A DNA stretch of 50,230 bases. It comes from Actinobacteria bacterium UBA4719 (GTDB taxonomy: Bacteria > Actinomycetota > Actinomycetes > Actinomycetales > Dermatophilaceae). How positions within the stretch are numbered: the stretch's first letter is position 1; every line of letters begins with the position of its first letter. The stretch lies in NCBI GenBank assembly GCA_002404345.1, contig DHJN01000196.1, positions 4,197 to 54,426 on the forward strand. Direction: 5' to 3'. The notes under the pieces were generated by a model. It searched no databases, had not been told where the DNA came from, and saw only the letters and a program-made list of their open reading frames with translations. The translations under genes were made by a program, and so were the position numbers. Positions 2,629 to 47,500 of the stretch are shown here, piece by piece.

Positions 2629-2676
2629 TGCGGCATCGGCCGTTCGGCCATATGCGGCATCGGCCGTTCGGCCATA
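2629..2676. repeat. 24-bp tandem repeat, two copies, in 350-bp intergenic gap
   Basis: Two perfect copies of a 24-bp unit beginning TGCGGCATCGGCCGTTCGGC (2629-2652 and 2653-2676). Each contains the near-palindrome GGCCGTTCGGCC. The gap 2519-2869 lies between the divergent GGDEF gene and the TnpB relic. Apart from this repeat it shows an AT-richer pocket near 2590-2605 upstream of the GGDEF gene and a hairpin-like CCCGGTCCTTGAGGTCCGGG near 2721-2740. No credible gene is visible in it. Confidence 0.85.
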
Positions 2677-2869
2677 TCAGGGAGGCCGCGGGAGCTGACC
2701 GCGTATTTTGGGCGGCGCAAGCCCGGTCCTTGAGGTCCGGGATAGCCGTCTCGCCTTCGCCTAGCCCGGACGCCTCTGGTCGTGTACGGCGCTGTTGCCG
2801 CGACGAGACGCCCTTGGGTGAGTTCACCAGTTTCGAGAGCTGCACGTCGGCGGGTACTCGATGAGCAGT

Positions 2870-3500
2870 CGCCTCGGTGGCGCTCGTGCAGGCATGCCAA
2901 GACGCCCGGCGCGCCTACCGCAACTGGTTCGACTCAATCTCCGGCAAGCGCAAGGGCCCACGGGTCGGGCACCCACGGTTCCGGTCCCGCAAGGACAACC
3001 GGGCCTCGATCTGCCTGACCCGCAACGGCTTCGGTGTCACCGCCCACGGCGTGCGGATCGCCAAGGTCGGGAACATCGCGTTGGTGTGGTCCCGGGAACT
3101 CCCGTCGGAGCCGTCCAGTGTCGGTCCGGCAGACCCGTCTGGACGCCCACCACAAGCTGGCCCACCGCATCGTTGGCGATAACCAAGCGATCTATGTCGA
3201 GGATCTCGCAGTATCCGGCCTGGCCCGGACCCGGCTGGCCAAGTCTGTCCACGACGCCGGCTGGTCGACCCTGATCCGACTCTTGGAGGAGAAGGCGCAG
3301 CGTTGCCACCGGAGCGTGGTCAGGGTCAGCCGCTGGTTCCCGTCGAGCCGGCTCTGCTCGGCGTGCGGATTCAAGTCAGGCAGCAAGCCCCTCGAGGTCA
3401 GGTCCTGGACCTGTATGTCGTGTGGTGTCGTACATGATCGCGACCTGAACGCTGCCAGGAACATTCTGGCTGAGGGTCGTAAAGTCGCCGCCGGGCTGGC
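2870..3500 (+). pseudogene. tnpB: Relic of IS200/IS605-family TnpB (OrfB) with internal deletion
   Basis: Two reading frames together give a decayed TnpB, the RNA-guided nuclease carried by IS200/IS605 elements. From about 2877 the first frame reads DARRAYRNWFDSISGKRKGP and continues to WSRELPSEPSSV near 3115. The second frame resumes at TRLDAHHKLAHRIVGDNQ and contains IYVEDLAVSGLARTRLAKS, a four-cysteine zinc finger (CSAC..CMSC near 3358-3425) and HDRDLNAARNI. The piece between them, about 100 residues that should carry the first RuvC aspartate (GIDLG block), is missing. The N-terminal part is also absent, and the C-terminus runs into unrelated sequence near 3500. The second and third RuvC acidic positions (E of VEDL, D of HDRDLN) are still present. 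It cannot be functional. No TnpA partner or element ends could be defined. Confidence 0.8.
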
Positions 3501-3735
3501 GGGGAGGCAAGCGCCGCGCCCAAGCCCTGGAGCCCGCGCGACGCGAGCAGGATCGACTCGCTCTGGGCGATGCCACCGAGCAGCGACGCGGCGGCGAAGG
3601 TCAGCACTCCGGTGACGAAGACCTTGCGGCGCCCGAGCAGGTCACCGATGCGACCGCCGAGCAGCAGCAGTCCAACGAAGGCGAGCGTGTAGGCGTTGAC
3701 GACCCACGACAGGTTGTCCTTGGGGGTTTCGTGTC
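3498..3735 (-). pseudogene. Fragment of an EmrB/QacA-type MFS drug transporter
   Basis: Read leftward, about 78 codons encode KDNLSWVVNAYTLAFVGLLL, then GGRIGDLLGRRKVFVTGVLT (the MFS GxLxDrxGRRk loop signature) and FAAASLLGGIAQSESILLAS, ending RGLQGLGAALASP. This is the TM2-TM4 part of a DHA2-family multidrug efflux protein. Neither the beginning nor the remaining ten or so helices are present. The fragment ends exactly where TnpB-relic sequence begins (about 3500) and at the other side stops near 3735, where the sequence changes character. It is therefore a leftover bounded by two rearrangement junctions. Confidence 0.8.
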
Positions 3736-3845
3736 ATCGAAATCCTGTTGCGGCCGGGGATGAACGCCAAATCGGTCGCGCTCCGGAATCTCAGGGGTGG
3801 CGCAGGCGTTGAGATCGATGACGCAAAAGTGAGCGATGATTGACC

Positions 3846-3885
3846 GACACGAGAGACGATTGAGGGACGCGAGAGACGATTGAGG
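3846..3885. repeat. 20-bp tandem repeat upstream of the PAC2 gene
   Basis: GACACGAGAGACGATTGAGG (3846-3865) is followed directly by a copy with one difference (GACGCGAGAGACGATTGAGG, 3866-3885). It ends about 35 bases before the PAC2 start and just before its AAAGGAGG ribosome-binding site, so it is in the probable leader or promoter region. The surrounding gap 3736-3920 shows nothing else recognisable. Confidence 0.85.
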
Positions 3886-3920
3886 CAAGAAGTTATCTAC
3901 CAGAAAGGAGGCGAACGGCA

Positions 3921-45868: not shown

Positions 45869-45923
45869 GAGCAGGCTCGGGAACAGCACGACGGCTGCTT
45901 GCCATCTGCTACCGGTAGCCGAG

Positions 45924-45955
45924 GCGGGGCGTGGACCATGACGGTCACGCCCCGC
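45924..45955 (+). terminator. Long hairpin after wag31
   Basis: GCGGGGCGTG (45924-45933) pairs perfectly with CACGCCCCGC (45946-45955), and the stem continues inwards as ACC/GGT. It is 56 bases after the wag31 stop. No T-run follows. It probably marks the end of the dcw transcription unit. Confidence 0.65.
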
Positions 45956-45962
45956 TGTTGCG

Positions 45963-46030
45963 TGATGGGGACTCTTGCCTGATGGGGACTCTTGCGTGAT
46001 CGGGACTCCTGCGTGAAGGGGACTCTGCTG
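45963..46030. repeat. 17-bp tandem repeat, four copies, between wag31 and the DksA-like gene
   Basis: TGATGGGGACTCTTGCC/G is repeated at 45963, 45980, 45997 (TGATCGGGACTCCTGCG) and 46014 (TGAAGGGGACTCTGCTG), with divergence increasing rightwards. It occupies the 307-bp gap 45869-46175, which otherwise contains only the hairpin above and no gene that I can see. Confidence 0.92.
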
Positions 46031-46175
46031 GTGCCCGCCTTTTTTGGGGGTCATAGAGGGACTAACCAACCCCAGGGCGGCGTTTCTCCATTGAGTCCTG
46101 TGCAGGATGGCCTTATCCTCACGCCACCTGTCCACGCTTTTGGGGACGACGAAAGCCACCTTGAAGGGGGCGATC

Positions 46176-46838
46176 ATGGCTGTGAAGAAGGCGACGTCCG
46201 CGACGAAGGCCGCAGCGACCAAGAAGGCGACCGCGACGAAGGCCACAGCGACCAAGAAGGCGACCGCGACGAAGGCCACAGCGACCAAGAATGGAGCGAG
46301 GGCCGCGACGAAGGCCACAGCGACCAAGAATGGGGCACGGGCCGCGACGAAGGCGAAGGCGACGAAGGCCACCGCGACGACATCGTCCTTGCAGGCACCC
46401 ACGCCCAGCACCTCCAGCACCTCCAGCACCTCCACTGCCCGGCCGCAGCGTCTGCGGGTCCGCGAAAACGAGACGCCTTGGACGGTAAAGGAGCTCACGG
46501 CGGTCCGTGCAGCGCTCGAAGCTGACATCGCCCGCCTGCACAACGAGATCTCGGCGGCCGAGTTCGACCTGGCCGGTCTCATGCGCGACGCCGGTGACGG
46601 GGCAGGTGATGACCAGGCAGACGCCGGCACCAAGACCTTCGAGCGTGAGCAGGAGATCTCGTTGGCCAACAACGCCCGCGAGATGTTCGAGCAGAGCCGG
46701 CGTGCGCTCGGGCGGATCGTCGACGGCAGCTATGGTGTCTGTGAGTCCTGCGGTGGACCGATCGGCAAGAATCGCCTTCTGGCCTTCCCGCGTGCGACGC
46801 TATGCATGACATGCAAGTCCAAGCAGGAGCGTCGCTAA
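46176..46838 (+). CDS. DksA/TraR-family zinc-finger protein with Lys/Ala/Thr-rich N-terminus
   Basis: A 220-residue protein. The C-terminal 115 residues form a DksA/TraR-type domain: a coiled helix (ELTAVRAALEADIARLHNEI), a second helix (FEREQEISLANNAREMFEQS) and a four-cysteine zinc finger (CESCGGPIGKNRLLAFPRAT, then CMTC). Such proteins act on RNA polymerase through its secondary channel, but many actinobacterial members are uncharacterised. The N-terminal 100 residues are low-complexity, histone H1-like Lys/Ala/Thr repeats (KKATATKATATKKATATKAT) that could bind nucleic acid. The ATG at 46176 follows GAAGGGGG. lspA begins inside its 3' end. Confidence 0.88.
   Translation: MAVKKATSATKAAATKKATATKATATKKATATKATATKNGARAATKATATKNGARAATKAKATKATATTSSLQAPTPSTSSTSSTSTARPQRLRVRENETPWTVKELTAVRAALEADIARLHNEISAAEFDLAGLMRDAGDGAGDDQADAGTKTFEREQEISLANNAREMFEQSRRALGRIVDGSYGVCESCGGPIGKNRLLAFPRATLCMTCKSKQERR
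46221..46364. repeat. 33-bp x2 and 39-bp x2 repeats in the DksA-like gene
   Basis: Two identical 33-bp units (46221-46253, 46254-46286; beginning AAGAAGGCGACCGCGACGAA) are followed by two 39-bp units (46287-46325, 46326-46364; beginning AAGAATGG), the second diverging at its end. All periods are multiples of three and encode the ATK-rich N-terminal region. Confidence 0.88.
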
Positions 46839-47500
46839 TTCCTCCACCAGTCACGAACCAGACCACGACCGCGCAACGGACATCACGACGACTGCTATTC
46901 CTCGCTTTGGTCGCCGTGGCTGCGCCGGTCTACGTCGCCGACCAGCTGACAAAGGCATGGGCCTCCGCCAACCTCCTGCCGGATCAGCCGCGCGACCTGA
47001 TCGGATCGGTGCTTCGGCTCAACTTGACCCACAACGCCGGCGCTGCCTTCTCGATCGGCACCGGAGCGACCTGGATCCTGACCGCCATCGCCTGTTCCGT
47101 TGTCCTGTTCGTCGTGTTCACCGCCCGACGCCTGGGCAGCCGAGGCTGGGCGGTGGCGCTGGGGCTGTTGCTCGGGGGCTCTGTGGGCAACCTCACCGAC
47201 CGCATGCTCCGGGCTCCTGGACCTGGCCGCGGACGCGTTGTGGACTTCTTGCAGCTGCCGCAATGGCCCATCTTCAACATCGCCGACTCGGCAATCGTCA
47301 GCGCGGCACTCCTGATCGGTGTGCTGGCCTTCCGCCGCGTCAGTGTCGACGGAACCCGCATGTCCGGCCATACGGCCAAGCACGAGAAGGCCAAGCACGA
47401 GAACGCCAAGCACGAGAACGCCAAACACGAGAACGCCAAGCACCAGCCCCCCAAGGCTGAGTCCCCCAAGCGCGTGACAGGAACACCTCACGATGCCTGA
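46811..47500 (+). CDS. lspA: Lipoprotein signal peptidase LspA
   Basis: Membrane aspartyl protease that removes lipoprotein signal peptides after lipid attachment. It has four hydrophobic segments and the family blocks ADQLTKAWA, LNLTHNAGAAFSI, LLGGSVGNLTDRML (first catalytic Asp), RVVDFL and FNIADSAIV (second catalytic Asp). The C-terminus bears an unusual hydrophilic tail of about 45 residues with KHENA repeats. The start is uncertain: ATG 46811 or 46802 lie inside the end of the DksA-like gene, and no ribosome-binding site is clear. The 3' end overlaps rluD by 8 bases. Confidence 0.9.
   Translation: MQVQAGASLIPPPVTNQTTTAQRTSRRLLFLALVAVAAPVYVADQLTKAWASANLLPDQPRDLIGSVLRLNLTHNAGAAFSIGTGATWILTAIACSVVLFVVFTARRLGSRGWAVALGLLLGGSVGNLTDRMLRAPGPGRGRVVDFLQLPQWPIFNIADSAIVSAALLIGVLAFRRVSVDGTRMSGHTAKHEKAKHENAKHENAKHENAKHQPPKAESPKRVTGTPHDA
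47375..47446. repeat. 15-bp repeats encoding the KHENA tail of LspA
   Basis: GCCAAGCACGAGAAG/C units start at 47375, 47390, 47405 and 47420, with a partial fifth at 47435. They encode AKHEK and then AKHEN three times, in the cytoplasmic C-terminal tail outside the peptidase fold. Confidence 0.92.

What the first reader, a model, noticed from the sequence alone, without database searches (positions are those of the whole stretch)
2629..47446. About 23 short tandem-repeat arrays spread through 50 kb, in phase with codons only inside genes
Read directly: arrays of 2-6 units at 2629, 3846, 4837, 6569, 11091, 13794, 15523, 16093, 16183, 24207, 25411, 26185, 30167, 31679, 42027, 42065, 42991, 43866, 45794, 45963, 46221 and 47375, plus the FtsL tail. 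Periods inside coding sequence are 9, 12, 15, 18, 33 or 39, all multiples of three. Periods between genes are 12, 15, 16, 17, 20, 22, 24 and 32. The units differ in sequence from site to site, so this is not one dispersed element but a recurring process that duplicates local sequence. Known background: actinobacteria generally lack MutSL repair and use NucS, which handles indels poorly, so slippage products could persist. Inference: the lineage produces leader-length and protein-tail variants at high rate, including next to mraZ, rsmH, ftsZ, sepF and rpoD.
Basis: partly seen in the sequence, partly recalled or inferred. Interest (0 to 1): 0.75.

Follow-up and report, generated by a model that had tools for sequence, protein, structure and literature searches.

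The report
Excess of young short tandem repeats
This actinobacterial genome, and one of three congeners sampled, holds several times more near-perfect short head-to-tail DNA duplications than other relatives sampled, mostly between genes and near protein ends, which looks like ordinary repeat formation running faster for an unknown reason.

Summary
In detail: TRF finds an array at all 22 listed sites and at the FtsL tail, and resampled sequence gives almost none. It is genome-wide: exact arrays with period >=13 run at 2.59/10 kb in the window and 1.21/10 kb in 478.5 kb elsewhere in the genome, against 0.16/10 kb in 2.14 Mb of comparison DNA, or 0.19 with loci first left out. One congener shares it (G003 0.78); two do not (G001 0.06, G002 0.15). 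The excess depends on stringency: 6-7-fold for exact arrays, about 3-fold at >=90% match, 1.3-1.5-fold for all TRF arrays. So what is unusual is an excess of young arrays. Periods inside genes are multiples of three (34 of 39 called coding), outside genes not (15 of 40), as selection would give. The NucS cause is not supported: NucS is present and MutS unmatched in array-poor congeners too. Of 38 arrays exact throughout, 27 show 0-3 bases of junction homology, so many births look homology-poor, followed by copy-number growth. I favour a lineage-specific rise in short tandem duplication, perhaps by fill-in end joining; the responsible gene is unknown and a high present-day rate is not shown.

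The parts
2629..2677 (.). 24-bp unit, 2.0 exact copies, called noncoding
3838..3885 (.). 20-bp unit, 2.4 copies, 89% match
4837..4910 (.). 32-bp unit, 2.3 exact copies, directly after the PAC2-family ORF 4294-4833
6569..6603 (-). 18-bp unit, 1.9 copies, inside the family-A DNA polymerase ORF 4951-6870
11089..11140 (.). 16-bp unit, 3.2 copies, at the 5' ends of two divergent ORFs (ATP-dependent DNA ligase; EcsC family)
13791..13838 (+). degenerate 6/12/18-bp repeat near the start of an alpha/beta hydrolase ORF
   Evidence: shorter and different in G003
15523..15562 (.). 20-bp unit, 2.0 exact copies, no junction homology; single copy in G003
   Evidence: removing one copy lengthens the G003 alignment from 70 to 100 bases
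16089..16182 (+). 15-bp unit, 6.3 copies (KAGTA), N-terminal part of an RpoD-like sigma factor
16179..16235 (+). 18-bp unit, 2.8 copies, same ORF
24209..24292 (.). 16-bp unit, 5.2 copies, between a DUF58 gene and an AAA_3-type ATPase gene (5' end of the called DUF58 ORF); array absent in G001
25411..25466 (.). 22-bp unit, 2.5 copies, 88% match, upstream of mraZ
26180..26252 (+). 15-bp unit, 4.9 copies, leader of rsmH, each full unit holding an ATG in frame with RsmH
   Evidence: absent in G001, other or degenerate repeats in G002 and G003
27734..27923 (+). 33- and 21-bp degenerate repeats, tail of the FtsL-position protein
   Evidence: no Pfam match
28073..28157 (+). 15-bp repeats, N-terminal part of the penicillin-binding protein (FtsI position)
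30165..30197 (+). 9-bp unit, 3.7 copies, N-terminal part of a Mur ligase
31673..31746 (+). 18-bp units, C-terminal tail of the same Mur ligase; absent in G001
42027..42059 (+). 16-bp unit, 2.1 exact copies: the last codons and stop of ftsZ repeated just after the stop; once in G003
42064..42103 (.). 12-bp unit, 3.3 copies, after ftsZ
42985..43059 (+). 18-bp unit, 4.2 copies, C-terminal tail of a laccase-domain protein; absent in G003
43842..43906 (.). 17-bp unit, 3.7 copies, directly before the conserved start of sepF
45788..45857 (+). 15-bp unit, 4.7 copies, C-terminal tail of a DivIVA protein
45958..46026 (.). 17-bp unit, 4.1 copies, 86% match, between genes
46185..46380 (+). 33-bp repeat (sub-periods 15 and 18), Lys/Ala/Thr-rich N-terminal region of a DksA/TraR zinc-finger protein
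47375..47443 (+). 15-bp unit, 4.6 copies (AKHEN), C-terminal tail of signal peptidase II

Best explanation
This genome and one congener (G003) carry an excess of young short tandem duplications, mostly with units of 12-33 bp, at many unrelated sites. Step 1 (inferred): a short segment is duplicated in place, in most cases with little or no homology at its ends; the route I think most likely is repair of a break with staggered ends, filled in and ligated (Ku and LigD polymerase genes are present). Step 2 (inferred): some pairs grow to 3-9 copies by slippage or unequal exchange between identical copies, and decay by point mutation. Step 3 (shown as a pattern): selection leaves any period between genes but nearly only multiples of three inside genes, often near protein ends. 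What raised the number in this lineage is unknown. Likelihoods: lineage-specific excess of young arrays about 0.9; raised supply rather than weaker purging about 0.65; fill-in end joining as the main birth step about 0.4.
For: Exact arrays, period >=13: 58 in 478.5 kb of the rest of the genome and 18 in 232.2 kb of G003, against 35 in 2137.6 kb of comparison DNA (p 8e-21 and 1.5e-6) or 43 in 2251.1 kb with left-out loci added (p 3e-19 and 7e-6). Arrays not fully coding: 3.34 against 0.54-0.81 per 10 kb of noncoding DNA. Junction homology: of the 38 of 79 arrays that are exact over their whole extent, 27 have 0-3 bases, none 4-6, 11 have 7 or more; a random cut gives about 50, 29, 12, 5% for 0, 1, 2, 3. 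Age spectrum in noncoding DNA: 32, 13, 17, 19 arrays with 0, 1, 2, 3 mismatches (chance 0, 0, 0.7, 7.3) against 7, 6, 5, 37 (chance 0, 0, 0, 12.7) in family noncoding DNA of similar size. Single-copy orthologs in G003 at 15523 and at the ftsZ end. Period rule; 20 of 33 in-frame coding arrays lie in the outer 40% of the ORF. Ku and ligD_pol present.
Against: The excess over comparison DNA is only 1.3-1.5-fold for all TRF arrays. The rsmH neighbourhood itself is rich in arrays in other genera: 5 with period >=13 in 42 kb of small loci I had left out, and 2 in 12.2 kb of G032. Ku, LigD polymerase, NucS and flap-nuclease matches are also found in the array-poor congeners, so none explains the difference. 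Homology of 1-3 bases is commoner than chance (21 of 27 with at least one, p 0.006) and 11 of 38 have 7 or more, as slippage would give. The single-copy test was clear at two sites; L124:5850 gave mild support, L171:7935 pointed the other way, L163:19547 was unresolved. G000 and G003 are not supported as sisters (G002 with G003 at 0.61), so the trait needs a loss or two gains; G001 and G002 are more fragmented assemblies.
Confidence: 0.55

Rival explanations
1. Replication slippage or template switching makes the first copy as well as the later ones; ordinary minisatellite dynamics, somewhat faster here.
For: Junction homology of 1-3 bases above chance (21 of 27) and 7 or more bases in 11 of 38 exact arrays; 16 exact noncoding pairs at periods 9-11 against 1.7 expected; the sigma-factor region is repetitive in G003 too, with another unit.
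Against: 18 of 38 exact arrays have 0 or 1 base of junction homology, too little to guide a slipped strand; no hairpin excess at the sites; no excess of periods 6-8 over relatives.
Confidence: 0.35
2. Duplications arise at an ordinary rate but are purged less, because this lineage has a small effective population or relaxed selection.
For: Degenerate TRF arrays occur at similar density in comparison DNA, so such duplications are common; GC and, by my caller, coding fraction are lower here than in most comparison loci.
Against: G001 has similar GC (0.662 against 0.670) and coding fraction (0.785 against 0.80) but 1 array in 161 kb; coding arrays remain filtered for phase.
Confidence: 0.2
3. NucS-based repair without MutSL lets slippage products persist, and this causes the excess.
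For: NucS present and no MutS match in G000; NucS cannot correct indels (PMC8228993, passages).
Against: The same holds for 37 of 38 genomes searched, array-poor ones included.
Confidence: 0.05
4. Footprints of transposons that left both target-site copies behind, or regulatory direct repeats.
For: Two-copy exact units with little junction homology; several lie in gene leaders.
Against: Periods spread from 12 to 33 instead of one fixed length; no clear shared motif; orientation of neighbouring genes is about as expected from the gaps. Insertion sequences were not searched.
Confidence: 0.04
5. Assembly artefact.
For: Draft assembly of 275 contigs, 87% complete; two sampled contigs begin in arrays (L184, L171).
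Against: Periods respect the reading frame inside genes and not outside, which an assembler cannot know; G003, another assembly, shows the excess too.
Confidence: 0.02

Closest known systems
Bacterial minisatellites / VNTR loci (incl. mycobacterial MIRU)
   Same: Head-to-tail units of tens of bases at many loci. PMC2884548 (passages read) counts minisatellites as 2-4% of E. coli variable loci and ascribes variation at short repeats to slippage.
   Different: Units here are unrelated between loci, and exact arrays are several-fold denser than in comparison DNA. That MIRU units are longer and related to each other is recalled.
Small tandem duplications from fill-in end joining at staggered breaks in mouse and human cells (PMC8355091, passages read)
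   Same: Duplications at paired-nick breaks, mostly Ku-dependent, with less microhomology than the polymerase-theta route.
   Different: Shown there in mammalian cells with Pol alpha-primase; here only gene presence (Ku, LigD polymerase) and a footprint pattern.
NucS non-canonical mismatch repair of actinobacteria (PMC8228993, passages read)
   Same: NucS is present in this genome.
   Different: Also present in array-poor relatives, so it does not account for the excess.

Membership tests
Bacterial minisatellite/VNTR arrays | Tandem head-to-tail units of about 9-100 bp | tested here: met
Bacterial minisatellite/VNTR arrays | Copy number varies among strains of the species | tested here: inconclusive
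   No second strain at hand; the signal peptidase II search listed one form of the own protein (P0001; other members of its cluster not seen) and the DivIVA search listed no conspecific
MIRU-type dispersed repeat family | Units at different loci are homologous | tested here: not met
   Only weak ACA and GTCA enrichment in 45 units
Fill-in end-joining duplications | Little or no junction homology | tested here: inconclusive
   27 of 38 exact arrays have 0-3 bases, but 1-3 exceeds chance and 11 of 38 have 7 or more
Fill-in end-joining duplications | Ku and an end-joining polymerase present | tested here: met
Fill-in end-joining duplications | Dependence on Ku | not testable with these tools
   needs genetics
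Mismatch-repair-defect repeat instability | Array-rich genomes differ from array-poor ones in MutS or NucS presence | tested here: not met
Mismatch-repair-defect repeat instability | Difference in MutL or in NucS active-site residues | not tested
   none
Transposon target-site footprints | One fixed duplication length | tested here: not met
   periods 12-33

The most novel reading that the evidence does not exclude
Within one genus, two species are natural mutators for short tandem duplication: breaks are filled in and joined so that segments of about 12-25 bp are copied in place without homology, a bacterial counterpart of eukaryotic small tandem duplications, and this is a main source of new spacer length and protein tails, while a third species (G001) lacks it and could reveal the responsible gene.
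Probability: 0.25. Interest if true: 0.75.

Novelty: new variant of a known kind. Interest (0 to 1): 0.4.

Why it matters
If the rate is really raised, species of one genus that differ about 8- to 20-fold in young arrays make the origin of bacterial minisatellites testable by comparison; the first step is usually put down to slippage (recalled; so also in PMC2884548). It would also mean that division and cell-wall genes here keep acquiring new leaders and tails.

Tried and rejected
Sequence motif in the units: only weak k-mer enrichment. Hairpins at the sites: mean longest stem 4.48 against 4.60 in random spacers, 40 arrays. Orientation of neighbouring genes: about as expected from gap lengths. 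Sharp lower length cut-off: it looked so for all DNA, but noncoding DNA also has 16 exact pairs at periods 9-11 against 1.7 expected, 10 of them at 9, so I dropped it. Loss of the flap-nuclease domain: matched in 23 of 23 genomes, though G001's polymerase-type copy is in pieces with a stop. DinB: 3, 1, 0, 2 matches in G000, G001, G002, G003, the 3 of G000 including one gene in two pieces; not a clean difference. Literature: six searches showed no report of this in this group among the rows listed; many papers are not held, so this is no proof of absence. Papers: passages read in PMC8228993, PMC9123174, PMC8355091 and PMC2884548; abstract and outline of PMC12978653; the rest search listings only. 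PMC9123174 does not contain the word repeat in its main text. Tail variants: no conspecific variants seen, but relatives differ. Rows left out of the first comparison: L138 (G032, 2 arrays in 12.2 kb), 26 small rsmH loci L007-L032 (many overlapping longer loci) and L233-L250; added back without double counting of genomes. A note of mine says all five coding exceptions lie at ORF 5' ends; four do.
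Full report
What is there. The window is G000:C256:4197-54426 of a draft assembly of 3.77 Mb in 275 contigs, 87% complete. Its best named RsmH relatives are Phycicoccus, Terrabacter and Ornithinimicrobium at 65-68% identity, and some related proteins are labelled Dermatophilaceae; the genus has no name here. 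Strictly exact arrays number 15, against 0 in each of 10 order-3 Markov resamples; TRF arrays of score >=50 and period >=9 number 30, against 0-3 in 10 resamples.

How unusual. I sampled 40 further regions of this genome, 21-22 loci of each of three congeners, 34 loci from other genera of the family, and used 80 named actinobacterial rsmH loci. Exact arrays with period >=13, masked bases left out: window 13 in 50.2 kb (2.59/10 kb); rest of genome 58 in 478.5 kb (1.21); G003 18 in 232.2 kb (0.78); G002 2 in 134.3 kb (0.15); G001 1 in 161.1 kb (0.06); comparison loci 35 in 2137.6 kb (0.16). Against the comparison rate p is 4e-11 (window), 8e-21 (rest), 1.5e-6 (G003), 1.0 (G002) and 0.51 (G001). 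I had left some fetched loci out of this comparison; with them it is 43 in 2251.1 kb (0.19) and p is 2e-10, 3e-19 and 7e-6. The window is richer than the rest of its own genome (p 0.023), as expected of a window picked for it. At the rate of the rest the genome would hold about 450 such arrays (extrapolation).

Results against a strong claim. With all TRF arrays (score >=50, period >=9) the densities are 3.49 (rest), 2.80 (G003), 1.05 (G001), 1.04 (G002), 2.26 (family) and 2.60 (80 loci) per 10 kb. By stringency: arrays not fully coding with period >=13 and >=90% match are 4.90 per 10 kb of noncoding DNA in the rest of this genome against 1.67 and 1.68 in comparison DNA, and coding ones 0.86 against 0.33 and 0.26. 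So degenerate arrays are ordinary in these GC-rich genomes, in small part because GC-rich DNA gives more chance matches (Markov background 0.50 and 0.64 in comparison DNA, 0.20-0.23 here), and the excess lies in the young, near-identical ones. The rsmH neighbourhood, part of the window, is rich in arrays elsewhere too: 5 with period >=13 in 42 kb of small loci from 11 other genomes, and 2 in 12.2 kb of G032, while 34 family loci of 20 kb had 11 in 680 kb.

Phase and place. Of 79 exact arrays (period 12-60) in this genome, 39 were called coding, 34 of them with a period divisible by three; of 40 partly or wholly noncoding, 15. Moving one misplaced array (42985-43059) gives 35 of 40 and 14 of 39. 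This is what selection against frameshifts gives, and it speaks against an assembly artefact. In-frame coding arrays tend to lie near protein ends: 20 of 33 in the outer 40% of the ORF, 15 of 33 in the outer 20%. In the window they include tails or N-terminal regions of an RpoD-like sigma factor, a Mur ligase, DivIVA, a DksA/TraR-type protein and signal peptidase II.

How they arise. In spacers, exact pairs number 21 at periods 14-17 against 0.05 expected, 16 at 9-11 against 1.7, and 18 at 18 and above except 27-31 and beyond 32 (3, 1, 2, 3, 1, 1, 1, 1, 1 at 18 to 26 and 1 at 32, that is 15 in all at 18 and above). Units share no clear motif, no hairpin excess and no clear orientation bias. 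Among the 38 of 79 arrays that are exact over their whole extent, the matched bases beyond whole copies are 0 in 6, 1 in 12, 2 in 5, 3 in 4, none with 4-6, and 7 or more in 11. A random cut gives about 50, 29, 12 and 5% for 0 to 3. So most of these births used little homology, yet 1-3 bases are over-represented (21 of 27 with at least one, p 0.006), and the second class may be slippage between older repeats or worn third copies. The age spectrum in noncoding DNA, 32, 13, 17 and 19 arrays with 0, 1, 2 and 3 mismatches (chance 0.7 and 7.3 for 2 and 3), against 7, 6, 5 and 37 (chance 12.7 for 3) in family noncoding DNA of similar size, points to a continuing process and to an excess that is young, not old.

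Ancestral state. At 15523 G003 has one copy; removing one copy here lengthens the alignment from 70 to 100 bases. At the ftsZ end the last codons and stop are repeated after the stop here and occur once in G003 (BLAST scores there do not discriminate). At 24209 G001 lacks the array. Of three further sites sought in congeners, L124:5850 gave mild support (107 to 111 bits), L171:7935 did not (127 bits with both copies, 114 with one; G001 has a degenerate repeat there), and L163:19547 was unresolved because the G001 match stops at the array. At some window sites congeners have other degenerate repeats at the same place (24209 and 26180 by eye; the sigma factor in G003), so these places tolerate repeats. 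The same is seen in signal peptidase II tails, where related metagenome proteins carry other units (P0002, P0004) and one close pair differs in tail copy number (P0061 and P0063).

Cause. NucS is matched in 38 of 38 genomes and MutS in 1 of 38, Ku in 32 of 38, the flap-nuclease domain in 23 of 23, LigD polymerase in 10 of 13, own genome included each time. G000 and the three congeners all have NucS, Ku, flap-nuclease and LigD-polymerase matches and no MutS match; G001's polymerase-type flap nuclease is in pieces. None of these separates G000 and G003 from G001 and G002. A three-gene tree puts G001 outside the other three (support 0.99) and G002 with G003 weakly (0.61). That canonical mismatch repair would miss loops of 14 bases or more is recalled. 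The cause stays open. I commit to a raised supply of short duplications with mostly homology-poor births, and to fill-in end joining as the likeliest route at about 0.4, by analogy with PMC8355091 (passages read).

Verdict. A real, lineage-specific excess of young minisatellites, ordinary in kind, unusual in degree, and a usable natural comparison. The claim of high-rate variation next to mraZ, rsmH, ftsZ, sepF and rpoD is not shown.

Noticed in passing
window 26180-26303: The rsmH leader array puts an ATG every 15 bases in frame with RsmH, so the ORF reads through the array as an N-terminal extension; the start at 26303 aligns with the congeners' start.
   Followed up: partly
G000:C150:9648-10080 (L162): A second DinB-type polymerase gene is matched in two pieces in different frames, while G003 has an uninterrupted frame for a second match at C31:31544; broken gene or assembly error.
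   Followed up: no
window 4951-6870 and 9458-11104: A family-A DNA polymerase ORF with only the polymerase domain matched and an ATP-dependent DNA ligase lie in the same window; the former holds a tandem duplication.
   Followed up: no
L184:1-124 (G003:C160) and L171:1-39 (G000:C240): Two sampled contigs begin inside tandem arrays, so arrays may break these assemblies and densities may be lower bounds.
   Followed up: no
G018:C4, C31, C2: One family member has six MutS_V matches; the other 37 of 38 genomes searched have none.
   Followed up: no
P0001-P0120: Signal peptidase II C-terminal tails in related metagenome proteins are built of different short repeats from one relative to the next.
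   Followed up: partly
L007-L032: The 4-kb neighbourhood of rsmH in other genera is itself rich in exact tandem arrays (14 in 100.6 kb at any period >=8), more than longer loci of the same region.
   Followed up: partly
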